Positions 13,153 through 34,037 of a stretch of 51,855 bases of DNA are shown here, piece after piece. Source of the stretch: Bacteroidota bacterium (GTDB lineage Bacteria; Bacteroidota; Bacteroidia; Bacteroidales; JAADGE01); assembly GCA_024277895.1 (NCBI GenBank), contig JAJRUH010000063.1:1-51855 (forward strand), in the 5' to 3' direction. Positions within the stretch are counted from its first letter, which is position 1; each line of letters opens with the position of its first letter. Both the position numbers and the translations under genes were made by a program. The notes under the pieces were generated by a model that had not been told where the DNA came from, did not search any database, and saw only the letters and a list, made by a program, of their open reading frames with translations.

Positions 13153-15144
13153 TTATCTTAAAATTTTCCGAACAAAAGCGACCGTAAAGTAAGACATTAA
13201 AAATAAACCTACAAAACCTTCAACGGAAGAAATCCATCGAGAAATTCCGTCAGGATAATAATCTCCGTACCCGATTGTTAAAAAAGTTATTGCACTGTGG
13301 TAAAATGCTTTACCTATAGGACCGAGTATTCTGGGATCATTTGGTGCAAAAAGGGAAGAGACAATATGTACGTTTCCGATTTTTGCCATAAAGATGTATA
13401 ATAATGTAAATAATAAATAGGTTAGGAGCATAGTTGATAATACACGAAGAGGATCGGTGGCAAATTTCCCCATTTTATCAAATACCAACCATTTGAAAGC
13501 ATAGTTAATATATGAAAATATTTTTAATTTCGGACGTTTGGAGATGTCTTCTTTTAAGTGAGCAATTGCTTCGGTACGTTTAAATTCAACATAAGCTTCA
13601 TCTTCATAGGAATATTGTCCGGTTACATTGTAATTTTCTTTTAAAATTCTGAATTGCTCTTCTTTGCTTTTTATTGTCGAATTTTGTTTGTAAATCAGTT
13701 CTTTCAGGTTTGCTCTTCGCCAATCAATATATATTCTTCCGAGCAGCCGCATTCCGGAAAAATCAACGGCTTCAATCTGCGGGTCGAAATCGGGCGGATT
13801 GATATCTAAAATATCTTTCACAACCGTATCTGACAAATCCAACATTTTGCAGGACGTGATTTGAAGATTAAAGTAATTATCTAATTGAGAACCTTTTAGA
13901 GAGAGTGTATTGAAAGTTGATTGTTTGAAAGATATTTTTCCGATTCCGAAATCAACATTATTAATTTCAACATCACAATTTTTAAAATCGGCTTCGCTGA
14001 AATTAAATTCTCCTTTTCCGAAAACAGAATCTTTAATAAGTAAATTACCTTTTAAAACTGTGCCTTCAAGAGTTATGTTATTATCTCCGAAATATGTTTT
14101 GTCAAAACTGACTTTACCGGTTCCGAAATTTACGGCTTTCATATTAACTCCTCCGTTCATAAATATACAACGATCAAATTGAACGTTTCCGTTTCCGAAT
14201 TCGCAGAAATGAAAATCAGTTATACCGGAACCGAAATTTGATAATCTGAAAGATGTAACACCGTCGCCGAAATTTACATTTTTAAAATAGACATTTCCGT
14301 TTCCGAAATCGGTATTAATAAACGATTTTTTTCCGTTTCCGAATTCGGCACTTGTAAAGTTAACTTTACCGTTTTGAAAGTTAGCCGACCTAAAAGAGAT
14401 GTCTCCGTTTCCGAAATTAACTTTTTCAAAATTAGTTTCGTCTTTTCCGAACTGTGCACGTGAAAAATCGATTCTTCCTTTTCCGAAATCAGCAACTTTA
14501 AAACTAACCGGACCGTTTCCGAATTTAGTATCGGTAAATAATACATCACCGGAATTAAAGTCAACATTTACAAAGATTACTTTACCTTCTTGAAACTCAA
14601 TGTTTTCAAAATCTTTAATACCTTCGGAGAAAACGCTGTTTTTAAAAATTACATCTCCGTCAGAGAAAGATGTTTTTGAAAAGTTTACAGTATCACATTT
14701 AAAAAAACAGTTACTGAAGTCATTGAGTTCGGCAAAAAAAATTGAAAAGGAGAAATTAAGTGTTTTGCAAATAAAATAAGTGCTGTTGAAATCAATTAAT
14801 TTCCCTTCAAACAGTATTTCGGAAAAGTTTATATCTTTTTCGGGGCTGTGAAAGAAAGCATTTTTAGCAGAAAAATTTTCGAGAATTATTTTTTCGGAGT
14901 AAACTTTGGCTTTTAAAAATTCTAAATCAATATTTTCTATATAAGCATAATTAAGCTGCAGCTCATTATTTTCTTTTATATATTTACTGATATAATTTGA
15001 ATCGGCATAACCGAATTCTTCTTCGGATAGTAATTTATTATTATTAAAAAATTTAATAACAGCAGTCTTGGGATAATTTATATTATCTTTACTAAACTGA
15101 TTATCAATAATTTCTACAGTAAATTCTGAAAAGTATTTCTGCAT
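13153..15144 (-). CDS. Two-TM potassium channel with long N-terminal pentapeptide-type repeat domain
   Basis: The 663-residue protein has no signal peptide. Residues about 90-430 are a long run of imperfect 12-residue repeats of the form F-G-N-G-x-V-x-F-x-x-x-x (for example [12 protein letters not shown] and [12 protein letters not shown]), which should form a beta-helix. The C-terminus is a classic channel module: TM helix ~568-590, pore helix and selectivity filter TIGYGD at 623-628, and a second TM helix to the end. It resembles Ion_trans_2 channels and would conduct K+ across the inner membrane, with the repeat domain cytoplasmic (inference). It lies just upstream of ppk1 in the same direction. 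The ligand or gating signal is unknown. Confidence 0.8.
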
Positions 15145-15198: not shown

Positions 15199-16722
15199 TT
15201 AAAAATCATCATTGTTCCCGTCTTCATCTATAAGTTCAATAATTTCAATGTTTAAATCAATTAATTCTTTAAATTTTCTGCCGTCGTTTAACATTGAAAT
15301 ATCTCCCGTGTTATAATACCAGTCAATATCAACCGAATTATTTTTAGAGATTTCTTCCAGAATCAATAAAATTTTAACTAATTGCCTGTCGGTTGCGGTA
15401 TTATAGTAGTCGAATTCAAATGAGATTTGGGTATGGTCTGCGGGATTTTCTTTATATGAATGCAGCCAATCAATAATGGGTTTGTAAAAACTTACTGCAT
15501 TCTCAGGAATGGATTTTCCTTTAAACTTAAGAATTCCGTCTTCGGGATCAAGTATTATTTCAGGAGTATCTTCCTCAGATTGAATTATATATTTTTCTAA
15601 TCCGTCTTTCATTTTATTAATTTGAATTTTGAGTGTAAAAAAAGAAAATTTCTCGTCAATTTTGTAAAAGTCATAAATAAAGGCATTTTTGGCTTTCATT
15701 TTTATATCAAGTAAGCCGAGCCCGGGATTTTCATCATTGTTATTATTAAAATTCAGAAGTGTTTCATTATATTCGTCAGAAAGATCAGTTTCGGATAAAT
15801 TGTTTACATTTTCAAGTTTTTCTTTGAATTCTTTAATTTTATAATTTTCGACATAATTTCCGGAAGTAAAAGTAAGGTTTTCTTTTGATTCTTTTATATA
15901 GAAAATTGCATGTTTTCCGGTTACATTATTAAGAGTATATATATCTGCGTGATTAACAATATTTTGTAATATTTCAACCATTAAATTAAAAACTTTCATT
16001 TTTAAAATTACCGTACCTTGTAATTGATTTTCGGTAATTGATAAAAGATTTACAAGTGTATCCTGAGTAAAAGCACCTATAAAATTCAATAATATATTTT
16101 CTTTTTCAAGAATTTTATGTCTTTTAATAATTTGTTTTAATGAATCAATATTATCTGATTTTGAATCATCGGAAAAGTCAATAATTTTTGAATGCATATA
16201 AAAAAATGAATAGTCATCATTAATTTTATCGAATTCATAAACAAGTTTATTTCCTGATTTTCTGGCTATTTCAATTAAACCCAAACCGGCACCTCCTTTC
16301 TCTGAGAATTCTCCTTCGCCAAGTTTTTCTAAAGAATATTTTTTTAATTCTTCTTTATTTAAATTATTTATTTTATTAATGAGTGCTGTAATATTTTCTT
16401 CGTGAGTTGATTTAATAAGATTTCCTGTTGTGATATAATAACCGTCGGGTTTATACTGAACAACAAATAAACCGGGATATCCCGCTAATTCATCAGACTC
16501 TGCAGAGCTTTGATGACGTGTTACATTTTGAAGACCTTCAACGATAATAAAGAAAACTCTTTTTCTGATTTTTTTTTCTACATTTTCATTTTGAAGGTTC
16601 GATTCTGTTAAAGCTAAAATTGTATCGGTAACTTTGGTCGTAAAGCTTCCGCGGTAGGTGTATTCCATAGTACTTCCGCGGATACTTTCAAAAAGTTTAT
16701 ATGCCAGATTGTTATTTTTCAC
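15199..16722 (-). CDS. SiaB-SiaB-SiaC fusion: putative tandem kinase fused to its phosphoprotein substrate
   Basis: The 507-residue protein contains two SiaB-type GHKL kinase-like modules and a SiaC-type (DUF1987-like) domain. Module 1 (1-185) has VEGLQNVTRH with Asn66 and the G-box GAGLGL at 144-149. Module 2 (205-370) has VEILQNIVNH with Asn254 and GLGL at 334-337. The C-terminal domain (378-500) carries NTAT at 441-444, where Thr444 aligns with Thr68 of the stand-alone SiaC in this window. In Pseudomonas, SiaB phosphorylates SiaC and the SiaA phosphatase reverses this; those roles are assumed here by homology. The start is GTG at 16722, with a TAACTTTG box 46 nt upstream. Confidence 0.75.
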   Translation of the reverse strand: MKNNNLAYKLFESIRGSTMEYTYRGSFTTKVTDTILALTESNLQNENVEKKIRKRVFFIIVEGLQNVTRHQSSAESDELAGYPGLFVVQYKPDGYYITTGNLIKSTHEENITALINKINNLNKEELKKYSLEKLGEGEFSEKGGAGLGLIEIARKSGNKLVYEFDKINDDYSFFYMHSKIIDFSDDSKSDNIDSLKQIIKRHKILEKENILLNFIGAFTQDTLVNLLSITENQLQGTVILKMKVFNLMVEILQNIVNHADIYTLNNVTGKHAIFYIKESKENLTFTSGNYVENYKIKEFKEKLENVNNLSETDLSDEYNETLLNFNNNNDENPGLGLLDIKMKAKNAFIYDFYKIDEKFSFFTLKIQINKMKDGLEKYIIQSEEDTPEIILDPEDGILKFKGKSIPENAVSFYKPIIDWLHSYKENPADHTQISFEFDYYNTATDRQLVKILLILEEISKNNSVDIDWYYNTGDISMLNDGRKFKELIDLNIEIIELIDEDGNNDDF

Positions 16723-23675: not shown

Positions 23676-26600
23676 TTAAACTTCATTTGCCCACTTAATT
23701 CCCATAAGCGTAATATCATCAACCTGCCGGTTATTTCCCATCCATTTTTGCATAATTTTTTCGGCAAAGATTTGCTGCTTTTGCATAGGGTAGGCGTGAA
23801 TTTCAAACAGAAAATCTTTAAATTGTCGTTTTGAAAATTTTCGATCTTTTTCGCCGCCTATCTGATCGGCATATCCGTCGGAGAATAAATAAAAAACATC
23901 ATCTTTTTGCAATTGAATTTCGGTAGTTTCAAAATCTTTTTCAACAGGATAATAACCTACCGGGTTACGAGTTGCTTTGTATTCCGTTAATTCATTGTTT
24001 CTTATCATTACCAAAGAATTAAATGCTCCGGAATATTGCATTTCATTTGTTTTTAAATTTATTGCACATAAGGCAATGTCCAATCCGTTTTTATTTTCTA
24101 AATTTTCACCTTTTGATTTGAAAATTTCTTTAATTTTGTTTCTTAACATGTTTAGAGCATCGCCGGTAGTACCGACTAAATTACGCATTATGATATCATC
24201 TAAGAAGCTGATACCAAGCATTGTAATAAGTGCACCCGGAATTCCGTGTCCTGTACAATCTGCAACTCCGATAACTAAAGTATCTTTTATTTGTCGCATA
24301 TAATAAAAATCACCTCCGATAGTTTCTTTGGGTTTAAAGTATATAAAAAGGTCCGAGTTTGTTTGGTTTTTTATTTTACTTATAAAGTTATCATCCGGAA
24401 GTAATGAATTCAGAATAAATTTAGAATAGTTAATAGATGCATTCAAATGATTTAAGGTTCCTTCGGCTTTTTCTTTAAGTTGTTCAATTTCTTTTGAGTA
24501 CATTTCAATTTCAAAACGTTTTTGGTCAACTTCCAGACTTTGAGCAAATAATTTTTGGTTTAATATTTCTTGTTCTTTACTTTGTTCTTCTAATTGTTTC
24601 AGATATTGCTCAACTTCCGAATTACGCTGTTCAACTTCAAGTTTTTGAGCAAAAAGTTTTTGATTTAATGCTTCTTGCTCTTTAGCTTTTTCTTCTAATT
24701 GTTTTGAATATTGTTCTGCTTCAAAACTTCGTTGTTCAACTTCGAGTTTTTGAGCAAATAATTTCTGATTAAGAGATTCTTGATCTTTATTTTGTTTTTC
24801 AATTTGTTCGAGATATTGTTGAACTTCGGAATTTCGTTGTTCCACTTCCAATTTTTGGGCAAATAATTTTTGGTTAAGAGCTTCCTGTTCTTTAGCTTTT
24901 TCTTCTAATTGTTTTGAATAAAGTTCAACTTCAAAATTTCGTTGTTCGACTTCGAGTTTTTGAGCAAATAATTTCTGATTAAGGGCTTCTTGTTCTTTAG
25001 CTTTTTCTTCAATTTGTTTTGAATATTGTTCAACTTCGGAATTTCGTTGTTCAACTTCAAGTTTTTGAGCAAATAATTTTTGGTTAAGGGCTTCTTGATC
25101 TTTATTTTGTTTTTCAATTTGTTCGAGATATTGCTGAACTTCGGAATTTCGTTGTTCAACTTCGAGTTTTTGAGCAAATAATTTTTGATTAAGGGCTTCT
25201 TGTTCTTTTGCCTTTTTTTCCAATTCACCGGCATAGGCTTCCGTTTCTTTTTGCTTTAATTCAACGTTTTTCTTTTGAGTTAAAATAGTTTGGTGTAAAA
25301 TTTCCTGTTCATTTTTTTGTTGCTCGATTTGTGTTGAATATAAACGAATAGCTTTATTTTTTTCTTCAAGTATTTCTTTTTGTTTTTCTAAATCGTTTTT
25401 TGTTTTTAAAATTTCATCTTGCGATTTTTTTCTGTGTATTACAGAAGCTAATGTTTCGGCAACTATTTGCAAAAATTTAATTTCAGAATCTGTTTTTTGA
25501 TGATTATGTTTTGTATAAAGATTTAAAACTCCCAATACTTCGCCGTGCATTATAACAGGAAGATTATAATGCCCGTGTTCGGTCATATTTTTAAACCGTA
25601 TTTCATGCTTATGATTAATATGGTTGCAAAATTGCATTTTCTTTTCCGATAAGGCTTTTCCGCAAAGACATTCTCCGGGTTTTATAAGTGCACATCTTTC
25701 GGCAACTTCTCCTAAATTTTTTTCGGCAACCATTTTCAGATTTCCGTCATCGGTTGTTAAAAAAATTGAACCTTTTGACATAACTTTCAGCCAAGATAAT
25801 TGCAAAAGTTTATCTAACGCATTTTGTAAAAATTCTTCAATACTTCGTTCTTTTCCCGAAACATTTCTTAAAATTTCAGAAATTGCGGCTTGTGAACGAA
25901 TTTGCTCGGAAGAATCTTCAAGTTCTTTTCTTGCAGTATCGGCATTTTTCTTTTCTTTTTCAGCTTGCAGCAGTGCAGCTTTTATTTTTTTATTTTTGCG
26001 TGTGTTTAGTATTAAAATCAATAAAATAAACAGGATAATAAAAATTCCTGATGCAATTAAAAGTTGAAAAAGTGTTATATTTTTTTGCAGATTTTTATTC
26101 GCTTCAGTCAGGTCTGTATTTTGTTTTTTCTCTGTTTCTAATTCAATATCTTGTTCTAATCGAATCAATTTTTCAGTTTCGTTAAGTTTCAGATAATTAC
26201 TTAATTGTAATTGAAATTTATAGGCATTTTCATAATCTGAATGTTTTATTGCAGCTTCTGTAAGAAGTTTTAGTGTTTTTTCTTTTACGGAAATATTATT
26301 AAAACTGTCGGCATATTGCAAAGCGATTTCTCCGTCTGATTTAAGTCTGTTATAATCATTCTTTTCAAAATCTGCTTTCATATAATAATAATACACACGT
26401 GCGATATCAAATTTATCAAATGTAAATGCGTATTGTTTGGCAGAATCTATATCTTGATAAGCTTTTTCGAATTGTTTTATTTTACTGTAAGTTTTACTTC
26501 TGAAAAGATGCAAATCGTTGAAATAGTGAAAGTTATTAAAGGTATTGCAGATTTTTAATCCTTTTGAAAAGTAATAAAAAGCACTGTCGTATTCCTGAAT

Positions 26601-27260
26601 TACATTCGAAAAATATCCGAGTGAAGTGTATGAATCTGCGATATCTTTATTATTGTTGATTTGTAATCGTAAATTCAGTGCTTTTTTAAAAAATTGTTTG
26701 GATTTTTCTAAATCTCCTTTTAGTTCATATACAATACCGAGTTTATTATATGTTTTCGCTATACCTCTTAAAGCTTTGTTTTCGTTTATTTGTTTTAAGT
26801 TTTCAAATTCTTTTAATGCATTATTATAGATTTCAATACTTTTGTCGAATTTTTCTTGGTAATAGTATATTTTTGCAATATCTAAAAGTATATATGCCGA
26901 ATTTAAGTTGGTATTATTTGCTGTTTTAAGAGCTTGAGAAAATGCGTTTAATGAAAGAGTATAAAAACCTTGTTCCAAGTATATATCTCCTAATTTATTA
27001 TACCAAAATACAGTTTTTTCGAGGTTTGTTTCTTTGAAAAGAGCAATTCCGTTTTTGGCGGTATTAATTGCCATTCCCCAATTATCTTTCAGGTATTCGT
27101 CATAAAGATTAATTAACGCATTATTTTTTACGGAATCGTCTGTTGCTGTTTCAAAAGATGTTTCTAAACTGTCAATTATTCTGTTATTTTGAGAATATCC
27201 TGAGTAAGAGTAGTTTAACAATAATCCGAAAAAGATTACTAATAGTGTTTTTTTATTCAT
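23676..27260 (-). CDS. TPR-TM-GAF-coiled coil-SpoIIE (PP2C) phosphatase, membrane signalling protein
   Basis: This is an 1194-residue sensor phosphatase. A signal peptide is followed by periplasmic TPR repeats (~30-385), a TM helix (~400-425), a cytoplasmic GAF domain (~455-610), a long coiled coil (~612-940) with seven near-identical 35-residue repeats, and a C-terminal SpoIIE domain (~955-1194). The SpoIIE motifs are intact: GGDFYY, ADCTGHGIPGA, FSDGYADQ and QVDDITLMG. The GAF domain has conserved-looking Cys and His (GECLCGKAL, FCNHINHKH, EHGHYNLP), possibly a metal or cluster site. The likely substrate is a SiaC-type phosphoprotein; siaC is the first gene of this cluster. ATG 27260 is preferred over TTG 27266. 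Confidence 0.85.
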   Translation of the reverse strand: MNKKTLLVIFFGLLLNYSYSGYSQNNRIIDSLETSFETATDDSVKNNALINLYDEYLKDNWGMAINTAKNGIALFKETNLEKTVFWYNKLGDIYLEQGFYTLSLNAFSQALKTANNTNLNSAYILLDIAKIYYYQEKFDKSIEIYNNALKEFENLKQINENKALRGIAKTYNKLGIVYELKGDLEKSKQFFKKALNLRLQINNNKDIADSYTSLGYFSNVIQEYDSAFYYFSKGLKICNTFNNFHYFNDLHLFRSKTYSKIKQFEKAYQDIDSAKQYAFTFDKFDIARVYYYYMKADFEKNDYNRLKSDGEIALQYADSFNNISVKEKTLKLLTEAAIKHSDYENAYKFQLQLSNYLKLNETEKLIRLEQDIELETEKKQNTDLTEANKNLQKNITLFQLLIASGIFIILFILLILILNTRKNKKIKAALLQAEKEKKNADTARKELEDSSEQIRSQAAISEILRNVSGKERSIEEFLQNALDKLLQLSWLKVMSKGSIFLTTDDGNLKMVAEKNLGEVAERCALIKPGECLCGKALSEKKMQFCNHINHKHEIRFKNMTEHGHYNLPVIMHGEVLGVLNLYTKHNHQKTDSEIKFLQIVAETLASVIHRKKSQDEILKTKNDLEKQKEILEEKNKAIRLYSTQIEQQKNEQEILHQTILTQKKNVELKQKETEAYAGELEKKAKEQEALNQKLFAQKLEVEQRNSEVQQYLEQIEKQNKDQEALNQKLFAQKLEVEQRNSEVEQYSKQIEEKAKEQEALNQKLFAQKLEVEQRNFEVELYSKQLEEKAKEQEALNQKLFAQKLEVEQRNSEVQQYLEQIEKQNKDQESLNQKLFAQKLEVEQRSFEAEQYSKQLEEKAKEQEALNQKLFAQKLEVEQRNSEVEQYLKQLEEQSKEQEILNQKLFAQSLEVDQKRFEIEMYSKEIEQLKEKAEGTLNHLNASINYSKFILNSLLPDDNFISKIKNQTNSDLFIYFKPKETIGGDFYYMRQIKDTLVIGVADCTGHGIPGALITMLGISFLDDIIMRNLVGTTGDALNMLRNKIKEIFKSKGENLENKNGLDIALCAINLKTNEMQYSGAFNSLVMIRNNELTEYKATRNPVGYYPVEKDFETTEIQLQKDDVFYLFSDGYADQIGGEKDRKFSKRQFKDFLFEIHAYPMQKQQIFAEKIMQKWMGNNRQVDDITLMGIKWANEV
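24475..25209 (-). repeat. Seven tandem 105-bp repeats coding for 35-residue coiled-coil units
   Basis: Each unit reads roughly KEQEALNQKLFAQKLEVEQR followed by 15 more residues, that is five heptads. Units 1 and 4 are identical in protein sequence, and units 1-2 closely resemble 4-5, suggesting a higher-order duplication of three units. The array lies wholly inside the phosphatase gene, so copy number would change the linker length without a frameshift. Confidence 0.85.
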
Positions 27261-27298
27261 TTTCAATGAATTTAATTATACAGGAAAGGATGAGAAGT

Positions 27299-27718
27299 TT
27301 ATATTCGGATATTTTTTTCTTTGAAATATGTATTGTAGGATCTGTCATCTTTTTGGATATGTTCAGTTATCCAAGTTTTAAGAAAATCCATTAATTCATA
27401 ATGAATATTTTTTTCTCCTTGTTTAATTTTATTCTTCCAAATTTCAATCTGATTAATAAAATCTTGATGTTTTGCAATATGGACATCTTTATCTGGATAA
27501 TTATGAGTTTCGAATAAATCCTCTTCTGTTTTAAAATGGTTTTGTGTATAATTTGATAATTCTTTTATAATTTCAGGAACTATGTCTTCTGCTTTTCCTT
27601 CTGAAAATGCATTAAATAATTTATTGATAATTTGAATCAGTTCTTTGTGTTCGTTGTCAATCACATCATTACCGACTGAATATATATTATCATTCCATTT
27701 AATAAAATCAACACTCAT
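27299..27718 (-). CDS. Bacteriohemerythrin (copy 4 of the cluster)
   Basis: The 139-residue single-domain hemerythrin is an O2-binding diiron four-helix bundle. Ligand motifs are complete: IDNEH, NHFKTEED (HxxxE), VHIAKH (HxxxH variant) and TEHIQKDD (HxxxxD). It opens with FIKWNDNIYSVGNDVIDNEHKEL, the usual W-x(n)-S-V-G start. It is the last of four tandem paralogues, 32 bp before the phosphatase gene. It differs from its siblings in a charged C-terminus (FKEKNIRI). Confidence 0.9.
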   Translation of the reverse strand: MSVDFIKWNDNIYSVGNDVIDNEHKELIQIINKLFNAFSEGKAEDIVPEIIKELSNYTQNHFKTEEDLFETHNYPDKDVHIAKHQDFINQIEIWKNKIKQGEKNIHYELMDFLKTWITEHIQKDDRSYNTYFKEKNIRI

Positions 27719-27756
27719 CTATTATATTATTATTATTAGTTATTTACTACAAATAA

Positions 27757-28164
27757 TTATTTGTTGTTACTTAAAAAGCCGGAATATTTCATATCTTCAA
27801 CCAATATATGATTTGTCCACCAAGTTTTAAGATATTCAATCATCTTATAATGAGCATCTTTTGATTCAGAATTTAAAAGATTTTTCAGTTCACTTGTTTT
27901 GTTTCGGAAAGATTGATGCAATTTTTCGTGTTCTTCTTTTTGAGGATAATTGTATTTAAACATCAGTTTTTCTTCCGAGTTTAAGTGAAAATTTGCATAA
28001 TCAATCATTTCTTGCAGAATATCATGTAAAATTTCTTGTGCGTTTCCTTCTTTAAACGATTTAAATAATTTATTGATAATTGCAATTAGTTTTTTATGTT
28101 GTTCGTCCATTTCGGTATTTCCTACTGAATAGGAATCATTCCAATTTATCAGGTTTTCTGTCAT
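27757..28164 (-). CDS. Bacteriohemerythrin (copy 3 of the cluster)
   Basis: The 135-residue hemerythrin keeps the diiron ligands: MDEQH, NFHLNSEE, EEHEKLH and TNHILVED. The copies in the cluster are clearly diverged from each other (shared framework, different surface residues), which suggests old duplications kept for different affinities or partners rather than recent amplification. A 141-bp gap precedes it, the largest within the cluster; no TAnnTTTG box was found there. Confidence 0.9.
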   Translation of the reverse strand: MTENLINWNDSYSVGNTEMDEQHKKLIAIINKLFKSFKEGNAQEILHDILQEMIDYANFHLNSEEKLMFKYNYPQKEEHEKLHQSFRNKTSELKNLLNSESKDAHYKMIEYLKTWWTNHILVEDMKYSGFLSNNK

Positions 28165-28305
28165 AATTTTTTAATTTTAAATTTATATACGATACATTAA
28201 TATTTTTAATAAAAAATGATTCAGTCAAATTTTTCTTAACAAGAAATTAGAAATATAATATGTCGTCATATATTGTATAGTGTGTTTATTTTTATTGTTA
28301 ATATT

Positions 28306-28713
28306 TTATTTTTGAACATAAGGCAAATATGTTCTGTCTGTACCCATAATATGTTTAATTAACCAATCTCGTAAAAAAGTCATTAAATCATAAGTTGTGG
28401 TCATATTTCCGTCTTTTACTTCTTGGTGATACTTTTTTAATTCATCAACAAAACTTTTGTGTATCTTGCGATGTTGCTCAACATCAGGATAATTTGAATT
28501 TGAAAAAATTTCTTCTTCGGCAGTAAAATGAAATACTGTATAATTTACCAGTTCTCCGATAATATCACCTATTTTTTCATGGGCTTGTGCCGTTGCAAAT
28601 GCATTATAAAAATCGTTGATAATATCAACTAATTTCATATGTTGTTCGTCAATTTCCTTGTATCCTAATTCATAAGTTGAATTCCATCGGATAAGTATTT
28701 TTTTTTCTTCCAT
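28306..28713 (-). CDS. Bacteriohemerythrin (copy 2 of the cluster)
   Basis: The 135-residue hemerythrin has IDEQH, VFHFTAEEE, VEQHRKIH and IKHIMGTD in order, giving a full diiron site. The start is 3 bp after the stop of the preceding hemerythrin, so the two are transcribed and probably translated together. The segment LIKHIMGTDRTYLPY is very similar to that of copy 1 (LIEHIMGEDKKYETF), making copies 1 and 2 the closest pair by eye. Confidence 0.9.
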   Translation of the reverse strand: MEEKKILIRWNSTYELGYKEIDEQHMKLVDIINDFYNAFATAQAHEKIGDIIGELVNYTVFHFTAEEEIFSNSNYPDVEQHRKIHKSFVDELKKYHQEVKDGNMTTTYDLMTFLRDWLIKHIMGTDRTYLPYVQK

Positions 28714-28716
28714 ATT

Positions 28717-29148
28717 TTAATTGTTTTTTTCGTTAATATCAATATTTTTTTCTTTAAAGAAAGTTTCGTATTTTTTGTCTTCACCCATAATATGTTCTAT
28801 CAGCCATTGCCTTAAAAAGTTCATAATATCGTATGAAACGGTAACTTTTCCGCTTTCTAAACCTTCCTTTAATTCGACTGCTTTATTTACAAATGATTTA
28901 TGAATTTCTTTGTGTTCTTCTGTGAACGGATAATTATATTTATCAAAATATTTTTCTTCCGATTTAAAATGATAATCGGTATATTTTATCATTTCGGAAA
29001 CAATGTCGACTGCTTTTTTATGTGCTTCACCTGAAAGAAATGAAGCATAAAGTTCATTAATCATTTCAATAAGTTGCTTATGTTGAGAATCGAATAATTC
29101 AAAACCCACGGAATAGTGATTATCCCATACAATTAGTTTTTTTTCCAT
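28717..29148 (-). CDS. Bacteriohemerythrin (copy 1 of the cluster)
   Basis: The 143-residue hemerythrin has FDSQH, DYHFKSEEK, EEHKEIH and IEHIMGED as diiron ligands. It is the first hemerythrin after siaC, 11 bp downstream, so it should share the siaC promoter at 29572-29626. Stand-alone hemerythrins store or deliver O2 or act as O2 sensors; here the linkage to a SiaC protein and SpoIIE phosphatases favours a sensory or protective role (inference). Confidence 0.9.
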   Translation of the reverse strand: MEKKLIVWDNHYSVGFELFDSQHKQLIEMINELYASFLSGEAHKKAVDIVSEMIKYTDYHFKSEEKYFDKYNYPFTEEHKEIHKSFVNKAVELKEGLESGKVTVSYDIMNFLRQWLIEHIMGEDKKYETFFKEKNIDINEKNN

Positions 29149-29159
29149 AACAAATAATA

Positions 29160-29534
29160 TTAATCGGTAATTTCTTTCATTTCAAACGGTATATTAAATA
29201 ATTCACTTATATCTTCGGCATTTTCTCTGTTGTCTTCATCATCAGAATCAAAGTACCAAATTACTTTAATATTTTTTCCGTTTTTATTGTATTCCATAAA
29301 TCGTGCCATCATATTTAAGATATATTTATAGGTTACGCTGTTAAAAACGGATAAATAGAATTCGCAGTTTAATTCGCATTCGAGTTCCGAGAACCTTTCG
29401 TTTATATATTTCATAACGGGCTCAAAAAAAGAATCTGAATCATTGGCAAATGAGAATCCTTTAATTTCAAAAATACAATCTTTTACGGAGATATTAACCA
29501 GAGGAGTTGTTTTAGTTGCTTCTGTTTTGAACAT
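29160..29534 (-). CDS. SiaC-family regulatory phosphoprotein (DUF1987)
   Basis: The 124-residue single-domain protein has the SiaC fold pattern: an N-terminal strand pair (VKDCIFEIKGFSFANDS), helix FFEPVMKYINERF, strand CEFYLSVFNSVTYKYIL and a C-terminal acidic strand region. Thr68 in NSVT is at the position phosphorylated in Pseudomonas SiaC (Thr68, from memory of that literature). In that system SiaB phosphorylates and SiaA, a PP2C phosphatase, dephosphorylates SiaC, and unphosphorylated SiaC binds an output enzyme. It heads the hemerythrin-phosphatase gene cluster. The candidate kinase is the SiaB-SiaB-SiaC fusion at 15-17 kb. No diguanylate cyclase is in the window. Confidence 0.8.
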   Translation of the reverse strand: MFKTEATKTTPLVNISVKDCIFEIKGFSFANDSDSFFEPVMKYINERFSELECELNCEFYLSVFNSVTYKYILNMMARFMEYNKNGKNIKVIWYFDSDDEDNRENAEDISELFNIPFEMKEITD

Positions 29535-29547
29535 ATTAAATTGTTTG

Positions 29548-29564
29548 TGTTACGGTATGTAACA
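29548..29564. promoter_or_regulatory. Perfect palindrome at the predicted siaC transcription start
   Basis: TGTTAC and GTAACA are perfect 6-bp arms around GGTAT. The site begins about where the siaC promoter (TATTTTTG at 29579-29572) should start transcription, a typical repressor position. The half-site resembles the GTTAC/GTAAC arms of the sites near the XRE gene, but the spacer is 5 instead of 4. Confidence 0.4.
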
Positions 29565-29571
29565 GATTTCA

Positions 29572-29626
29572 CAAAAATAAATAAAATAGAACTGAAAAAT
29601 ATAAAAAAGGTTAGCAAAAGGTTAAC
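29572..29626 (-). promoter_or_regulatory. siaC-hemerythrin promoter with upstream 20-bp activator-like site
   Basis: Read on the minus strand, GTTAACCTTTTGCTAACCTT (29626-29607) is followed after exactly 27 nt by TATTTTTG (29579-29572), which fits TAnnTTTG. The site holds an 11-bp direct repeat (plus strand AGGTTAGCAAA then AGGTTAACAAA). The same site with 19/20 identity and the same 27-nt spacing precedes the phosphatase gene at 30370. The remaining 29627-29834 is AT-rich with no supported gene. Confidence 0.65.
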
Positions 29627-29834
29627 AAATTCAAATTATATTTTTTTACAATTATCAGGTCTGTTAAAATTTAATCTTTTGCAATACTTTTTTTATTTTC
29701 GTAATAATAATACAAGTGTTTTTTCATTTATTTCAATCAATATTATCTTTTTTCTTGCAAAGATAACAAACTTTAATCAATATAATTCTAATTTGTATAT
29801 TCATACCTTATTATTACTAATTAAATAATAATAT

Positions 29835-29842
29835 TACTTTTG
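29835..29842 (+). promoter_or_regulatory. TAnnTTTG box of the CZB gene
   Basis: TACTTTTG lies 35 nt before the ATG at 29878. The 20-bp site shared by the flanking promoters is absent here, so this gene may be expressed independently. Confidence 0.4.
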
Positions 29843-29877
29843 TTTTTTATCAATTTTATAATAATAAAATAACAAAA

Positions 29878-30282
29878 ATGACAAAAGAAGAAATAATAAC
29901 AGAAATAAATAAAGCTAAAAATGCTCATGTATTATGGTTTGCAAATGCAATGGCATTATCAACGGGTACTGATCCGGGAGATTCAAGTGTTCCGAAAAGA
30001 CATACCGAATGTGCTTTCGGGAAATGGTATTACGGTACAGGTCAGGAAAATAATTATTTAGAATCTTATAAAGCAATTGAAGGAATTCATAAAGAATTAC
30101 ACAATCAATATAATGAAATATTTAAACAGTTTAAGAAATTGGATTCGGAAGGATTTTTTGAAGATATTACACTCAGAGATTCTGCGGAACAGTTGAATTT
30201 TAATATTACAATTGATAAATTAAAAGATATTTCCTTAGAATTATTAGAGAAATTGACTGACTTGCAGGCAGAGTTGAAGTAG
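29878..30282 (+). CDS. Stand-alone CZB-domain (chemoreceptor zinc-binding) protein
   Basis: The 134-residue protein is a single CZB domain. The 3-His/1-Cys zinc set is visible: His17 in NAHVLWF, Cys45 in TECAFGKWYYG, and His71 and His75 in GIHKELHNQYNE. Spacing (28, 26, 4) is close to that of the zinc-sensing domain of E. coli DgcZ (30, 27, 4). CZB domains are usually fused to chemoreceptors or diguanylate cyclases and sense zinc or hypochlorous acid. Here no output domain is attached, so it must act through a partner. It sits between two promoters that share an operator-like site. Confidence 0.8.
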   Translation: MTKEEIITEINKAKNAHVLWFANAMALSTGTDPGDSSVPKRHTECAFGKWYYGTGQENNYLESYKAIEGIHKELHNQYNEIFKQFKKLDSEGFFEDITLRDSAEQLNFNITIDKLKDISLELLEKLTDLQAELK

Positions 30283-30290
30283 ATTTTATT

Positions 30291-30345
30291 GTTTACCTTT
30301 TGCTAACCTTATTATCCTTATTTTTTTATAAAATAACTAATTTTG
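30291..30345 (+). promoter_or_regulatory. Promoter of the second TPR-SpoIIE gene with shared 20-bp site
   Basis: GTTTACCTTTTGCTAACCTT (30291-30310) is followed after 27 nt by TAATTTTG (30338-30345), and 24 nt later by the ATG at 30370. The arrangement is the same as at the siaC promoter, which points to a common activator binding at about -60 to -42. Confidence 0.65.
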
Positions 30346-30369
30346 TTTGATTTTTTAAAAAAAAGATTT

Positions 30370-32268
30370 ATGAATCAACTTAAAGATAATTTGTTAAAAG
30401 TAATTTTTTTGATTTTACTTATATGTGCTTTTGTCATACGATTAAATGCACAAAATCAAAAATTTCCTCTTTCAAGACAAGATTCAGCAAATATATCAAT
30501 TTTTGAACAAAAAGCTGAAACTTACAGAGCTAATACATTTTTTAAAGAAGAAAGCGATTGTTACAATAAAATAGCTGATATTTGGTGGGAACATAATTAT
30601 TTTTCTGCTGCTGCCGAATATTATAATAAATCTTTAGATATAAATAAAAAATTGGCAAATGCCAATGGTATAGCTATGATTAACAGTAATTTGGCATTAA
30701 TTTATGCAGATAAAGGCGATTACAATAAATCGTTGGAATATTTTGATAAAACATTGTCAATACGTAAAGCACGAAAAGAAAAGATCGGGATTATTGCTGC
30801 ACATATTAATATGTCAGTAGTATTAAATAATCTGAAGCGATATAATGAATCTGTTCAACACTTGGAAAAGGCTTTAGATCTGGCAAGAGAAATGAATGAT
30901 CCCGTTCAAATGCGTTCCTGCTACGGAATGTTATCGGAAACTTATGAAAAAGCAGGTAATTCAAAAAAATCAATGTATTATTTTGAGTTATACAGAGATT
31001 TTAATGAACTTGTTGAAAATAAAAAAGTTAAGAAAGCTATAGATTACGCAAAAGAACAAAAGCTACAGAAAGAACTTGCCGAAAAAGAAAATAAAATAAA
31101 AGAATTAGAAATTCTGAAAAAGAATTATGAATTATATACAAAAGGAAAAAAACTTAAGGAATCGGAATCTCAAACATTGAGTTTACTTGATACAATTTCA
31201 GAGAAGGATTTGAAATTAAAATATATTGAAAATGAAAAGAAATTAGAAATAATACGAAATCAACAGACTGTTTTAAAAAATAAACTTTTAATCAGAAATA
31301 TCATTTTAATTACATCCGTATTTCTGTTAATTCTTTTTATCGTAGTTTTTTTCTATATTCAAAAACAAAAGTCGAACAAATTACTAAAAGCAAAAAATAC
31401 TGAAATTTCGCAAAAAAACAAACGAATTCAAATACAAAAAAACAATATTGAAGAATTACTTATAAAAACTACAGAAGCACACGAATCAATAAAAAAAAGT
31501 ATAGATTATGCTGCATTCATACAATCGGCAATGATTAACAAAACACCGAAATTAAAAGATTATTTACCTGACTCATTTATTCTGTACAAACCTAAAGATG
31601 CAGTAGGAGGAGATTTTTATTGGTATGCAAAGGTTGGATATAAAATTGTTATTGCAGCAGTTGATTGTACCGGACACGGTGTACCCGGAGCATTTTTGAC
31701 GGTTTTGGGAAATAATTTATTAAATCAAATTGTTACAATATCTGAAATAACTAATCCGAGTGAGATTTTAAGTAAAATGCACTATTATATTACCGAAACA
31801 CTTAACCAAAAAAACGGTAATAATAAAGACGGGATGGATATAGCTATATGCACTGTTGATACAAAAGAAAGCAAGTTAAGTTTTGCCGGAGCAAATAATC
31901 CTTTAGTATTGATTAAAGATAATAAGATGCAAATTATAAAAGGAAATAAATACGGGTTGGGAGGTTTTGCGGATATGCTTTATAACAGAAGAATTGAAAT
32001 TACCGGAAAAGATAATGAAAGGTATGATACCCACCAAGTTGATATTAAAAAGGGAACTGCAGTTTATTTATTTTCTGACGGTTTTCAAGATCAAATAGGA
32101 GGAAATAAAACAAAAAAGCTAAGATCTTCTGCTTTCTATAATCTTCTTTATACAGAGTATAAATTAGCTTCCGAGCAACAAAAAGAAAAGTTAATCTCTT
32201 TTTTTAACGACTGGAAAGGAGAAAACGAACAAGTTGACGATATAGTCGTAATAGGAATTAAATTTTAA
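30370..32268 (+). CDS. TPR-TM-SpoIIE (PP2C) phosphatase
   Basis: The 632-residue membrane phosphatase has a signal peptide ending RLNAQ and TPR repeats (~30-225; for example NLALIYADKGDYNKSLEYFDKTLSI). A coiled coil, a TM helix (~306-330) and a C-terminal SpoIIE domain (~397-632) follow. Catalytic motifs are intact: GGDFYWY, VDCTGHGVPGAF, FSDGFQDQ and QVDDIVVIG. ATG 30370 is chosen over an in-frame TTG at 30343, which overlaps the promoter box. It shares its promoter architecture with siaC, so it is a good candidate for the SiaA-like phosphatase acting on that SiaC. It is followed after 5 bp by an exported protein gene. Confidence 0.85.
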   Translation: MNQLKDNLLKVIFLILLICAFVIRLNAQNQKFPLSRQDSANISIFEQKAETYRANTFFKEESDCYNKIADIWWEHNYFSAAAEYYNKSLDINKKLANANGIAMINSNLALIYADKGDYNKSLEYFDKTLSIRKARKEKIGIIAAHINMSVVLNNLKRYNESVQHLEKALDLAREMNDPVQMRSCYGMLSETYEKAGNSKKSMYYFELYRDFNELVENKKVKKAIDYAKEQKLQKELAEKENKIKELEILKKNYELYTKGKKLKESESQTLSLLDTISEKDLKLKYIENEKKLEIIRNQQTVLKNKLLIRNIILITSVFLLILFIVVFFYIQKQKSNKLLKAKNTEISQKNKRIQIQKNNIEELLIKTTEAHESIKKSIDYAAFIQSAMINKTPKLKDYLPDSFILYKPKDAVGGDFYWYAKVGYKIVIAAVDCTGHGVPGAFLTVLGNNLLNQIVTISEITNPSEILSKMHYYITETLNQKNGNNKDGMDIAICTVDTKESKLSFAGANNPLVLIKDNKMQIIKGNKYGLGGFADMLYNRRIEITGKDNERYDTHQVDIKKGTAVYLFSDGFQDQIGGNKTKKLRSSAFYNLLYTEYKLASEQQKEKLISFFNDWKGENEQVDDIVVIGIKF

Positions 32269-32273
32269 ATAAA

Positions 32274-34037
32274 ATGAAAAATAAAATGAAAAAACTCCGG
32301 TTTATTGCAATTATTATAGTTTCGGAAATATTTTGCTTTACTGCGTTAAATGCACAAACAGAAATCATTCCTGAAAAAACAAGTTATGAAGACTCTTCGG
32401 GTTTATTGTATTGGAATAAAGATTTGCCTGTTTACCTTCATTTGTCATCAAAACCCGACGAAAAAGGAAATTTGCTTAACAGTAAAGTTTCTGCCAAATA
32501 TACAAATCCTTTTTATTTTGATACGGAAGGTATTAATTATATGCGAACCAGATATGCCGTTGATACGGCGACGAGGAAAACCGTAAACCCGCATATAGAA
32601 ATTTTATGGGAAGTATATGCCGACGGAAAAGCTCCTCTTACAAAAGCAAAATTTTCAGATGCAAAAAAATATGTTTTTGAAGGTAAAACCTTTTACGGCA
32701 AAGGTTTAAGAATTTTATTAAATGCCGAAGATGCCGGTTCGGGAGTTAAAGATATTTATTATTCCGTTAATTCGGAGCCGTATAAAAAATATACAACTAA
32801 ATTAATCCCTAATCCGAACGAGAAAATTTGCGAATTAAAATATTATGCGACTGATAATACGGGAAATATTGAAGATGTTAAAAAGAATAAAATAACTTTC
32901 TTTATAGACGAAGATGCTCCCGAAACTTTTCATAATATTACCGGTATTGATATAAAAAGAAGTATAATTGCCCTAAATACAAAAATATACCTTGATGCTT
33001 CCGATTCAAAATCAGGTATAAAGGCAACATATTATAAATTTGACAAAGGTCCGTATATTCCGTATAACGGGAATATTTTGCCGCTGAAACAATTAACTGA
33101 GGACCATCATACATTAACATATTATTCTGAAGACAAAGTCGGAAACAAAGAAACACCCAAAACATTTGAATTCTTTTTGGATAAAAGTGCACCAATTCTT
33201 ACTTCCGATGTTCTGGGAGACAGGTTTATCGTCAACAACAAAATATACTTTTCAGGAAGAACGAAACTTAAATTAACTGCCGTTGATAATAAATCAGGCG
33301 TAAAAGAAGTAAAATACGAAATAGACGGCTCCGAATTTAAAAAATATACTCAACCGTTCTATTTACCTAAAGAACCCGGTTATCATATTATTAAATATTA
33401 TGCAATTGACAGAATGAATAATAATACGGGAATAAGCGGAAATAATGTTAAAAATTATAAATATTCAACCAAAAAGATATATGTTGATTTAGTAGGTCCT
33501 ACACTTAAACACTCGTTTATAGGTAAAAGATTTTATACCAGAGATACGGTTTTTCTCGGAAAAAATTCAAAAATCAAGTTATCGGCTGTTGATACCGAAT
33601 CCGGTTTACAATATATATCATATTCAATCGACGGGGTTCAAAAAGAAACAATGTATAAAGAACCTTTCACCGTTTCCGGAAACGGAAAACACTTGATTGA
33701 ATATTTCGGTTATGATAATGTAAACAACAGAAATATAGGACGTTTTTATGTCAAAGTAGATGAAAATCCGCCGGAACCGAATTATACATTCAGCGTTAAG
33801 CCGTACAGAACAGAGAATAATCTGAATGTATATCCTTCTTATGTTATGGTATATTTATCAGGTGTCGACCGAATGACCGGAACCGAGCAAATCTTTTATT
33901 CCGTTAACGGAAGTATTGAAAAACTTTATACAATTCCGATTTCCGGTTTTACAAAAGGAAAAAACACATTAAAATTCAAAACTGTCGATAAACTCGGAAA
34001 CGAAAAATATGATAAAGTGAGTTTTATTATTGAATAA
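32274..34037 (+). CDS. Exported protein with five OmpL47-type repeats
   Basis: The 587-residue protein has a signal peptide ending TALNAQ. It then has about five ~75-residue repeats of the OmpL47/bacterial Ig-like type, each with a GSGVKDIYYSVN-like strand, a KYYATDNTGNIE-like strand and a DEDAP-type boundary. The last repeat ends the protein (LKFKTVDKLGNEKYDKVSFIIE); there is no T9SS sorting domain. The role is unknown; such repeats often mediate surface binding. It is cotranscribed with the SpoIIE phosphatase (5-bp gap) and followed by a terminator, so it may be the surface component of that operon. Confidence 0.7.
   Translation: MKNKMKKLRFIAIIIVSEIFCFTALNAQTEIIPEKTSYEDSSGLLYWNKDLPVYLHLSSKPDEKGNLLNSKVSAKYTNPFYFDTEGINYMRTRYAVDTATRKTVNPHIEILWEVYADGKAPLTKAKFSDAKKYVFEGKTFYGKGLRILLNAEDAGSGVKDIYYSVNSEPYKKYTTKLIPNPNEKICELKYYATDNTGNIEDVKKNKITFFIDEDAPETFHNITGIDIKRSIIALNTKIYLDASDSKSGIKATYYKFDKGPYIPYNGNILPLKQLTEDHHTLTYYSEDKVGNKETPKTFEFFLDKSAPILTSDVLGDRFIVNNKIYFSGRTKLKLTAVDNKSGVKEVKYEIDGSEFKKYTQPFYLPKEPGYHIIKYYAIDRMNNNTGISGNNVKNYKYSTKKIYVDLVGPTLKHSFIGKRFYTRDTVFLGKNSKIKLSAVDTESGLQYISYSIDGVQKETMYKEPFTVSGNGKHLIEYFGYDNVNNRNIGRFYVKVDENPPEPNYTFSVKPYRTENNLNVYPSYVMVYLSGVDRMTGTEQIFYSVNGSIEKLYTIPISGFTKGKNTLKFKTVDKLGNEKYDKVSFIIE

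What the first reader, a model, noticed from the sequence alone, without database searches (positions are those of the whole stretch)
23676..34037. Candidate oxygen/redox/zinc-responsive partner-switching locus
One divergent locus combines a SiaC phosphoprotein, four diverged hemerythrins with intact diiron ligands, a phosphatase with a Cys/His-rich GAF domain, a stand-alone CZB zinc-site protein, a second SpoIIE phosphatase and an exported OmpL47 protein. Hemerythrin and CZB are both known sensory metal domains (O2; zinc or HOCl), but here each is a separate protein without an output domain, next to serine/threonine phosphatase machinery. A system in which free metal-domain proteins tune SpoIIE phosphatases acting on SiaC would be new to my knowledge. 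No GGDEF output is nearby.
Basis: inference. Interest (0 to 1): 0.75.

Follow-up and report, generated by a model that had tools for sequence, protein, structure and literature searches.

The report
Hemerythrin-paired phosphatase switch locus
In an uncultured bacterium, probably of the Bacteroidales, and its relatives, small oxygen-binding hemerythrin proteins are encoded beside one particular kind of regulatory phosphatase, which suggests that bacteria use detachable oxygen or redox sensor proteins to drive a protein-phosphorylation switch.

Summary
In detail: a SiaC phosphoprotein gene, four bacteriohemerythrin genes with complete diiron ligands and a TPR-GAF-SpoIIE phosphatase gene run on one strand; a CZB protein, a second SpoIIE and an OmpL47 protein diverge from them. 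SiaC-hemerythrin linkage is kept in 8 of 13 congeners. The deeper association is hemerythrin with phosphatase. These phosphatases carry a 35-residue coiled-coil unit just before the catalytic domain. Searching by that unit alone gave 17 new loci in other families of the order; 13 held a phosphatase with readable neighbours, and 11 of the 13 have a hemerythrin gene alongside. A hemerythrin gene also sits inside a phosphatase-SiaB-SiaC operon of Rhabdochromatium marinum, whose phosphatase lacks the unit. Best reading: free hemerythrins act in trans as O2/redox sensor subunits of SiaA-type phosphatases, probably through the coil, much as RsbT acts on RsbU. Binding, signal and substrate are inferred. 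Corrections: the residue equivalent to Pseudomonas Thr68 is Ser66; CZB is optional (3 of 8 loci); no GGDEF was detected in the whole genome, so SiaC's output is unknown.

The parts
23676..27266 (-). TPR - TM (by eye) - GAF - coiled-coil - SpoIIE/SiaA-type PP2C phosphatase (1196 aa)
   Evidence: Pfam; catalytic Asp columns invariant in 7 aligned PP2C domains; AlphaFold model of its last 302 residues best matches SiaA-PP2C 6k4e, TM-score 0.91 by target length
24489..25223 (-). seven clear 35-residue (105-bp) coiled-coil units ..EQEALNQKLFAQKLEVEQRNSEVEQY.. between GAF and PP2C (an eighth, weaker one by HMM): proposed hemerythrin docking/transmission segment
   Evidence: not found in any other SpoIIE ORF of the own genome
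27299..27718 (-). bacteriohemerythrin 4 (139 aa)
   Evidence: 8-row orthologue group, support 98 (quick tree)
27757..28164 (-). bacteriohemerythrin 3 (135 aa)
   Evidence: 6-row orthologue group, support 100 (quick tree)
28306..28713 (-). bacteriohemerythrin 2 (135 aa), most conserved of the copies tested (dN/dS 0.020 against G012)
   Evidence: 13-row group, support 98, which also holds an extra copy type of some congeners (quick tree)
28717..29148 (-). bacteriohemerythrin 1 (143 aa); nearest solved structures are DcrH hemerythrin domains
   Evidence: 7-row orthologue group, support 98 (quick tree)
29160..29534 (-). SiaC-family phosphoprotein; predicted phosphoacceptor Ser66 (FNS-VTYK)
29878..30282 (+). 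stand-alone CZB protein (134 aa), accessory
   Evidence: present at 3 of 8 assessable orthologous loci
30343..32268 (+). second phosphatase: TPR - TM (by eye) - SpoIIE/SiaA-type PP2C (641 aa), no coil unit
   Evidence: orthologue in divergent position at 6 of 7 assessable loci
32274..34037 (+). OmpL47-type repeat protein (587 aa), export judged by eye from its N-terminus
   Evidence: follows the second phosphatase at 4 of 4 loci where that place is visible

Best explanation
The locus is a partner-switching module whose sensory input is supplied in trans by free hemerythrins. SHOWN by comparison: (i) these hemerythrins are encoded next to, mostly just upstream of and sometimes overlapping, one class of SiaA-type PP2C phosphatase; (ii) that class carries a 35-residue coiled-coil unit, in one or several copies, next to the PP2C domain; (iii) the pair recurs across families of the order; (iv) in this genus siaC stands directly upstream of the hemerythrin run. 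INFERRED: the hemerythrin, in an O2- or redox-dependent state, binds the phosphatase dimer at the coil unit and changes the coiled coil that leads into the PP2C domain, as RsbT does on RsbU, and so turns the phosphatase on or off; the phosphatase acts on SiaC phosphorylated at Ser66 by SiaB-type kinases encoded elsewhere in the genome; SiaC then binds an effector that is not a GGDEF enzyme. The several hemerythrins would differ in O2 affinity or autoxidation rate and compete for the tandem coil units, widening or grading the response.
For: Hemerythrins follow SiaC in 9 of 9 genomes with this SiaC, and the phosphatase follows them in 7 of 7 where the contig reaches it. In the family (21 genomes), 16 have a hemerythrin above 160 bits by sequence alone; the phosphatase is next, or one DUF6976 gene away, in 12 of 12 whose neighbour can be read. 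Coil unit: a genus-trained HMM finds the hemerythrin-linked phosphatases of other families of the order at E 8e-5 or better. Coil-first test: 11 of 13 assessable new phosphatase loci have an adjacent hemerythrin gene, in 10 genomes and 7 families. Combined table: coil phosphatases 21 adjacent, 2 one gene away, 1 none; phosphatases without coil 1 adjacent, 37 none. In L139, L148 and L353 Pfam finds no domain in the phosphatase but SpoIIE, leaving hemerythrin as the only constant input. Separate case: phosphatase-hemerythrin-SiaB-SiaC operon in Rhabdochromatium with a 4-bp overlap. Hemerythrin orthologue groups kept across congeners, under purifying selection. The model runs the last coil unit as one helix (residues 2-61) up to the PP2C fold. 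RsbT-RsbU precedent for activation through a linker coil (PMC12143880, passages).
Against: No interaction, O2 response, kinase or phosphatase activity is shown. The shared coil could be inherited baggage of one old gene pair, so the 11 loci are not 11 independent events. Negatives: L347 (coil, no hemerythrin), L362 (weak coil, none), L357 (coil-like unit in a histidine kinase, none). The Rhabdochromatium phosphatase, though hemerythrin-linked, has no coil unit, and none of the 29 other best hemerythrin loci in its order shows SiaB, SiaC or SpoIIE within about 1.5 kb (own-genome HMMs). Copy numbers do not match one to one: hemerythrins and coil units are 4 and 7 in the window (8 by HMM), 3 and 6 in G009 (8 by HMM), 5 and 2 in G004 (6 by HMM), 3 and 1 in G794, at least 2 and 1 in G619. 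No siaC beside the pair was seen in other genera, Rhabdochromatium excepted, nor is this SiaC found in G007 and G011, which have the pair.
Confidence: 0.57

Rival explanations
1. Metabolic neighbourhood: the hemerythrins are O2 buffers, carriers or scavengers that protect the cell at low O2 and are co-transcribed with a phosphatase working in the same conditions, without direct coupling.
For: Known single-domain hemerythrins do this (McHr with methane monooxygenase, HerA protecting Fe-S enzymes: PMC4919030 passages). Co-transcription alone would give synteny.
Against: Hemerythrins track one coil-marked phosphatase class rather than SpoIIEs at large: 21 of 24 against 1 of 38 adjacent (many loci were fetched for having a hemerythrin). 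Another hemerythrin type of the same genus (own contig C22, G012 C1, G002 C62) is not adjacent to a phosphatase. The pair often overlaps or lies 2-3 bp apart, as in translational coupling (L292, L293, L355, L356, L358, L360, L361).
Confidence: 0.25
2. The GAF domain of the phosphatase is the O2/redox or metal sensor and the hemerythrins only feed or buffer its ligand.
For: A C-x-C-G motif is kept in 11 of 11 GAF regions that aligned (13 phosphatases given), and the HGHY motif in 8 of 11. GAF is also present in L346, L348, L352 and L358.
Against: Paired phosphatases without a recognised GAF exist: L139, L148 and L353; L292 and L293 do not align in the GAF region. The His motif is lost in L118, L295 and L296 although the hemerythrin stays.
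Confidence: 0.1
3. The hemerythrins are co-ligands or outputs of SiaC rather than inputs to the phosphatase: SiaC binds them and so controls O2 storage.
For: siaC is the gene directly upstream of the hemerythrin run in this genus, and the authors of the SiaC-SiaD structure suggest that such proteins modulate adjacent proteins (PMC8457831 passage).
Against: In G007, G011, other genera of the family and other families the hemerythrin-phosphatase pair stands without siaC next to it, as far as contigs reach.
Confidence: 0.07

Closest known systems
SiaABCD partner switch of Pseudomonas aeruginosa
   Same: SiaC-family phosphoprotein and a phosphatase whose PP2C domain best matches SiaA (6k4e) in fold; SiaB-type kinase domains exist in the genome.
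   Different: No SiaB at this locus, no GGDEF detected in the genome, Ser66 in place of Thr68, hemerythrin genes in the run; both proteins fall below the NCBIfam SiaA/SiaC equivalog cut-offs.
RsbT-RsbU (Bacillus subtilis general stress response)
   Same: Model: a separate protein activates a PPM phosphatase through the coiled-coil linker before the catalytic domain (PMC12143880 passages).
   Different: The partner here is a diiron hemerythrin, not RsbT; a repeated 35-residue coil unit; binding untested.
Hemerythrin-domain sensors (DcrH, Bhr-DGC, Bhr-HD-GYP)
   Same: Hemerythrin with the diiron ligands as the likely O2/redox sensor; DcrH is the nearest solved relative.
   Different: Those are fused to their output (listed as a family feature in PMC9388753 section 9); here the hemerythrin is a separate protein and the output is a Ser/Thr phosphatase, which is not among that review's section headings.
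MsmHr of Mycobacterium smegmatis
   Same: A free hemerythrin-like protein that affects a pathway governed by anti- and anti-anti-sigma factors (SigF), PMC4295536 passages.
   Different: Reported effect is on sigF transcription; the word phosphatase does not occur in that paper's main text.

Membership tests
Sia partner switch (SiaA/B/C/D) | SiaC-family regulatory phosphoprotein | tested here: met
   PF09345 95.4 bits, cut-off 24.5; but below the equivalog cut-off of NF038265 (58.1 against 150)
Sia partner switch (SiaA/B/C/D) | Phosphoacceptor at the SiaC T68 position | tested here: inconclusive
   Aligned residue is Ser66, N-S-[VI]-T-Y-K in all 16 SiaC of this locus type in alignment A2; phosphorylation not testable
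Sia partner switch (SiaA/B/C/D) | SiaA-type PP2C phosphatase | tested here: met
   PF07228 64.1 and 56.6 bits; best fold match 6k4e, TMt 0.91; profile of 7 PP2C domains matches 6k4e at E 1.2e-64; not an equivalog (168.4 and 174.4 against 700)
Sia partner switch (SiaA/B/C/D) | SiaB kinase in the same operon | tested here: not met
   No DUF6272 match within 23676-34037; 9 domain matches elsewhere in the genome, nearest at window 15637-16596
Sia partner switch (SiaA/B/C/D) | GGDEF output enzyme SiaD | tested here: not met
   0 GGDEF matches in the whole genome, 8 of 14 control genomes positive
Bacteriohemerythrin | Hemerythrin domain over cut-off with diiron ligands | tested here: met
   NF033749 120.5-141.6 bits, cut-off 84, for all four; ligand columns invariant in 21 rows (ligand identity recalled)
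Hemerythrin domain-containing sensors | Fusion of hemerythrin with an output domain | tested here: not met
   All four window copies are single-domain; fusions to DUF6976, of unknown function, in G003 and G004
Hemerythrin domain-containing sensors | O2- or redox-dependent control of an output | not testable with these tools
   Needs biochemistry
RsbT-RsbU type trans-activation | Helical linker running up to the PPM domain | tested here: met
   Model m5a4a067a3426: one helix, residues 2-61, then PP2C; mean pLDDT 85.3; monomer only, so coiled-coil dimer not tested
RsbT-RsbU type trans-activation | Partner protein binds linker and activates | not testable with these tools
   No complex prediction available; only gene linkage and coil co-occurrence
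CZB zinc-site proteins | CZB domain with the four Zn ligand positions | tested here: met
   PF13682 52.1 bits; H, C, H, H align with DgcZ 3t9o; that these are the ligands is recalled

The most novel reading that the evidence does not exclude
Hemerythrins act as exchangeable, detachable sensor subunits of PP2C phosphatases. Each 35-residue coil unit is a docking site, and the tandem array of units plus several hemerythrin paralogues forms a combinatorial O2/redox integrator that sets SiaC phosphorylation in a bacterium without detectable GGDEF enzymes. Loci with one hemerythrin have one unit in 12 of 12 cases; 8 of 10 multi-hemerythrin loci have two or more units (counts collected by hand, tested; seven of the eight are one genus, and several loci lie near contig ends).
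Probability: 0.28. Interest if true: 0.85.

Novelty: new variant of a known kind. Interest (0 to 1): 0.7.

Why it matters
Single-domain hemerythrins have been explained mostly as O2 carriers, scavengers or protectors (PMC4919030 passages). If some are sensor subunits that act in trans on Ser/Thr phosphatases, many orphan hemerythrins become candidate signalling proteins, and the coil unit gives a sequence marker for finding them. It would add O2/redox as an input to Sia-type partner switching. It would also show Sia switching working without GGDEF enzymes, in a genome that has 11 SiaC matches, 9 SiaB domain matches and 22 SpoIIE matches.

Tried and rejected
Rejected: (1) hemerythrin run as a random expansion: the four copies fall in orthologue groups with support 98, 98, 100 and 98 shared among congeners (quick SH-aLRT tree, careful search unfinished; the group of copy 2 includes an extra copy type); one copy is decayed in G003 (3 stops). 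(2) A second hemerythrin-SpoIIE pair on own contig C22: an aminotransferase lies between, and in G012 the same hemerythrin stands beside a 408-aa ORF of the same length without SpoIIE, so probably coincidence. (3) L166 (SpoIIE more than 1.3 kb from hemerythrin, other ORFs between). (4) GAF Cys/His cluster as a conserved metal site: His part not conserved. (5) CZB as a core part: 3 of 8 loci. (6) L305 (two hemerythrins, RmuC, SiaC): no phosphatase, probably chance. (7) DUF6976, between or fused with hemerythrin and phosphatase in 5 congeners, has no paper in the library and stays unexplained. (8) One coil unit per hemerythrin: not borne out (see evidence against). In one search I first left out G619 (at least two hemerythrins, one unit) and G003; one search recounts with both. 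Literature: searches. Searches gave no paper with the terms hemerythrin and SpoIIE; one search listed 20 papers holding two of four terms, none on this subject by title or shown abstract, most not opened. Only the open PMC library was searched. Papers opened were seen as passages only (PMC7647112, PMC8457831, PMC12143880, PMC4295536, PMC4919030, PMC11841059, PMC1592074, PMC9239204), except PMC9388753 (abstract, outline, passages, section 9).
Full report
WHAT IS THERE. The window is contig C40 of a 3.19-Mb, 183-contig genome, 95.7% complete. Relatives are probably Bacteroidales-type MAGs: L130, titled Acetofilamentum sp. from isolate series SulCav, appears to be the same contig as G002 C59 (equal length and mirrored gene coordinates), and L139, titled Bacteroidales bacterium, lies in a genome of the same order (G612; equal contig length). 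On the minus strand, in order of transcription: SiaC (29534-29160), four single-domain bacteriohemerythrins, and a 1196-aa TPR-GAF-coiled-coil-SpoIIE phosphatase ending at 23676. Gaps are 11, 3, 141, 38 and 32 bp (from coordinates). Divergently: CZB protein, TPR-SpoIIE phosphatase, OmpL47-type protein.

THE NETWORK AROUND IT. The same genome has 11 SiaC matches (one with an in-frame stop), 9 SiaB-type kinase domain matches (DUF6272), 22 SpoIIE matches, 9 hemerythrin matches, 2 CZB matches and no GGDEF match (controls positive in 8 of 14 genomes). So Sia-type switching is expanded here and is unlikely to end in a GGDEF enzyme recognised by that profile. No kinase gene lies at the locus itself.

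CONSERVATION IN THE GENUS. Among 13 congeners, 8 encode this SiaC at 59-92% identity (alignment A2); the best listed match outside the genus among the 60 genomes searched is 41%. In all 8, hemerythrins follow. A second SiaC (39-44% to the window SiaC) precedes it in 7 of the 8 (the eighth, G012, is cut by the contig end); the window locus has none. The TPR-SpoIIE stands divergent at 6 of 7 assessable loci, the exception being G001, which has a WD40-caspase-like protein there. CZB is present at 3 of 8 assessable loci. The four window hemerythrins fall into separate groups shared with congeners and are under purifying selection against G012: dN/dS 0.084, 0.020 and 0.158 for copies 1, 2 and 4, SiaC 0.128, two flanking genes 0.068 and 0.120 (copy 3 was not computed). 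In G003 and G004 the last hemerythrin is fused to DUF6976; in G006, G007 and G011 a free DUF6976 gene follows the hemerythrin. Of the five congeners without this SiaC, G007 and G011 still have hemerythrin-DUF6976-phosphatase; G005, G008 and G013 have no hemerythrin above 125 bits.

THE DEEPER PAIR. A family-wide search with the hemerythrin profile (21 genomes) gives a match above 160 bits in 16 genomes. The neighbourhoods show that the constant partner is the phosphatase. Where the next gene can be read, it is the phosphatase, directly or across DUF6976, in 12 of 12 genomes: own, G012, G004, G001, G009, G002, G003 (phosphatase cut before its PP2C domain), G007, G011, G015, G014, G018. Not assessable: G010, G006, G016 (contig ends). 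G017 has a matching phosphatase-like N-terminal part with a coil unit, cut before PP2C, and is left out of the count. Two further Bacteroidetes, L139 and L148, have hemerythrin followed after 33 and 67 bp by a 384- or 375-aa phosphatase in which Pfam finds only the SpoIIE domain.

THE COIL UNIT. The hemerythrin-linked phosphatases of this order share a 35-residue unit, consensus LExQxKEQExLNQKLFAQxLEVEQRNxEVExYxKE, shortly before the PP2C domain. The window has seven clear units in tandem (24489-25223, period 105 bp; an HMM counts eight). An HMM of the units scores 44.5 bits or more in all those phosphatases held at that time, including L292, which was not in its training set; the next of 2395 ORFs scored 7.4 bits. 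The other SpoIIE ORFs of the own genome were in that set and do not match. The hemerythrin-linked Rhabdochromatium phosphatase does not match either. An HMM trained on genus sequences only recovers the linked phosphatases of other families of the order at E 8e-5 or better.

COIL-FIRST TEST. The unit was then searched for without reference to hemerythrins (its alignment of course comes from linked phosphatases): 1 of 395 genomes sampled across the phylum (the own one) and 19 of 393 in the order. I fetched the 19 listed loci outside the family. Two are the training contigs of L139 and L148. Of the 17 others, 16 are SpoIIE phosphatases and one (L357) is a histidine kinase without a hemerythrin. 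Three phosphatases start too close to a contig end to judge (L346, L349, L354). Of the 13 left, 11 have a hemerythrin gene adjacent on the same strand: L348 (two), L350 (downstream), L351 (two), L352, L353, L355, L356, L358, L359 (three), L360 (cut by the contig end) and L361, from 10 genomes in 7 families. Two have none: L347, and L362, whose coil match is weak (10 bits). With the own family and that of L139/L148 this makes nine families. Over the large loci held, by an automatic rule, coil phosphatases are 21 adjacent, 2 with one gene between and 1 without; phosphatases without coil are 1 adjacent (Rhabdochromatium) and 37 not. The rule set aside 7 ORFs near contig ends, among them L360, and counts L362 as without coil. 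The Fisher value printed there (2e-12) overstates the case, because many loci were fetched for having a hemerythrin or the coil and the genes are related by descent.

A SEPARATE CASE. In Rhabdochromatium marinum DSM 5261 (L176) the order is a 1789-aa phosphatase (Cache, SBP, HAMP, PAS, SpoIIE), hemerythrin (4-bp overlap), SiaB, SiaC, then a GAF-HD protein. Its phosphatase lacks the coil unit, so this is either a separate recruitment or another docking mode. It is rare: the other 29 best hemerythrin loci of its order show none of SiaB, SiaC or SpoIIE within about 1.5 kb by own-genome HMMs, and of the 80 loci only L130, L131 and L176 hold SiaC.

MECHANISM. The PP2C domain with the last coil unit was modelled from 7 sequences (mean pLDDT 85.3): one helix spans residues 2-61, containing the unit, and leads to the PP2C fold; the best structural match is SiaA-PP2C (TM-score 0.91 by target length), ahead of RssB, RsbU and SpoIIE domains. 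Work on RsbU shows that a separate partner, RsbT, activates a PPM phosphatase by ordering the coiled-coil linker before it (PMC12143880 passages). Hemerythrin sensors so far reviewed are fused to their outputs and respond to O2 and to oxidation of the diiron site (PMC9388753 section 9). Joining these, I propose that free hemerythrin docks on the coil unit in a state-dependent way. That step, the direction of the effect and the substrate are inferences. Phosphatases in which Pfam finds only PP2C besides the coil (L139, L148, L353) make hemerythrin the only constant candidate for the input.

SIAC. Alignment with Pseudomonas SiaC puts the phosphoacceptor at Ser66. All 9 first and 7 second SiaC of this locus type carry N-S-[VI]-T-Y-K, whereas 5 of the 8 paralogues of the same genome in that alignment have N-T. 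Thr68 is a different column.

WHAT IS WEAK. CZB and zinc sensing have little support here. The GAF Cys motif is conserved but its His part is not. The output of SiaC is unknown. The association of hemerythrin copy number with coil unit number is suggestive only: 12 of 12 single-copy loci with one unit, 8 of 10 multi-copy loci with more, but seven of the eight come from one genus, unit counts depend on the method, one single-copy locus (L296) has a phosphatase cut before PP2C, and L350, L353 and L355 lie within 0.6 kb of a contig end.

VERDICT. The locus is real and conserved. It is best seen as a new variant of partner-switching input: a hemerythrin-phosphatase pair, marked by a coil unit, joined in this genus to SiaC. 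Confidence in direct hemerythrin-to-phosphatase signalling is about 0.57.

Noticed in passing
window 15199-16722 (-) and 13153-15144 (-): A 507-aa SiaB-SiaB-SiaC triple fusion followed by a 663-aa repeat protein with a C-terminal ion channel pore (Ion_trans_2): a possible SiaC-controlled channel.
   Followed up: partly
own genome, 11 SiaC matches: SiaC family expanded to 11 matches in a genome without a GGDEF match; G063 has 16 SiaC matches. The outputs are probably other than SiaD-like enzymes.
   Followed up: partly
L053 4932-11888: Phosphatase, SiaB, SiaC and an ABC transporter protein with a weak TerB match in one run, another candidate SiaC output.
   Followed up: no
L112 7605-9062, L117 2027-3490, L116 8024-9013, L290 646-1635, L291 2709-3704: DUF6976, fused to or following a hemerythrin in 5 congeners, ahead of the phosphatase where that is visible; no paper found.
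   Followed up: partly
L297-L303 (HEM near the C-terminal end of 893-910 aa proteins): Large proteins with a C-terminal hemerythrin in 7 genomes of the family; in the two sequences read, membrane helices, GAF- and PAS-like parts and no obvious output domain, judged by eye.
   Followed up: no
L176 4629-13495: Rhabdochromatium operon: phosphatase, hemerythrin, SiaB, SiaC, GAF-HD protein.
   Followed up: yes
L357 2389-6432: Histidine kinase with a coil-like unit (25 bits) beside a SpoIIE gene, no hemerythrin.
   Followed up: no
L114 4949-8356: WD40-caspase-like protein stands in G001 where other congeners have the divergent TPR-SpoIIE.
   Followed up: no
L016 / G000:C114:11686-12033: SiaC match with one in-frame TAG, possibly decayed.
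   Followed up: no
L132 5602-6449: Bacteroidales contig with two hemerythrins that pair in the tree with the two of G790 (L348); no phosphatase was found on the 6.5-kb contig, which ends just behind them.
   Followed up: no
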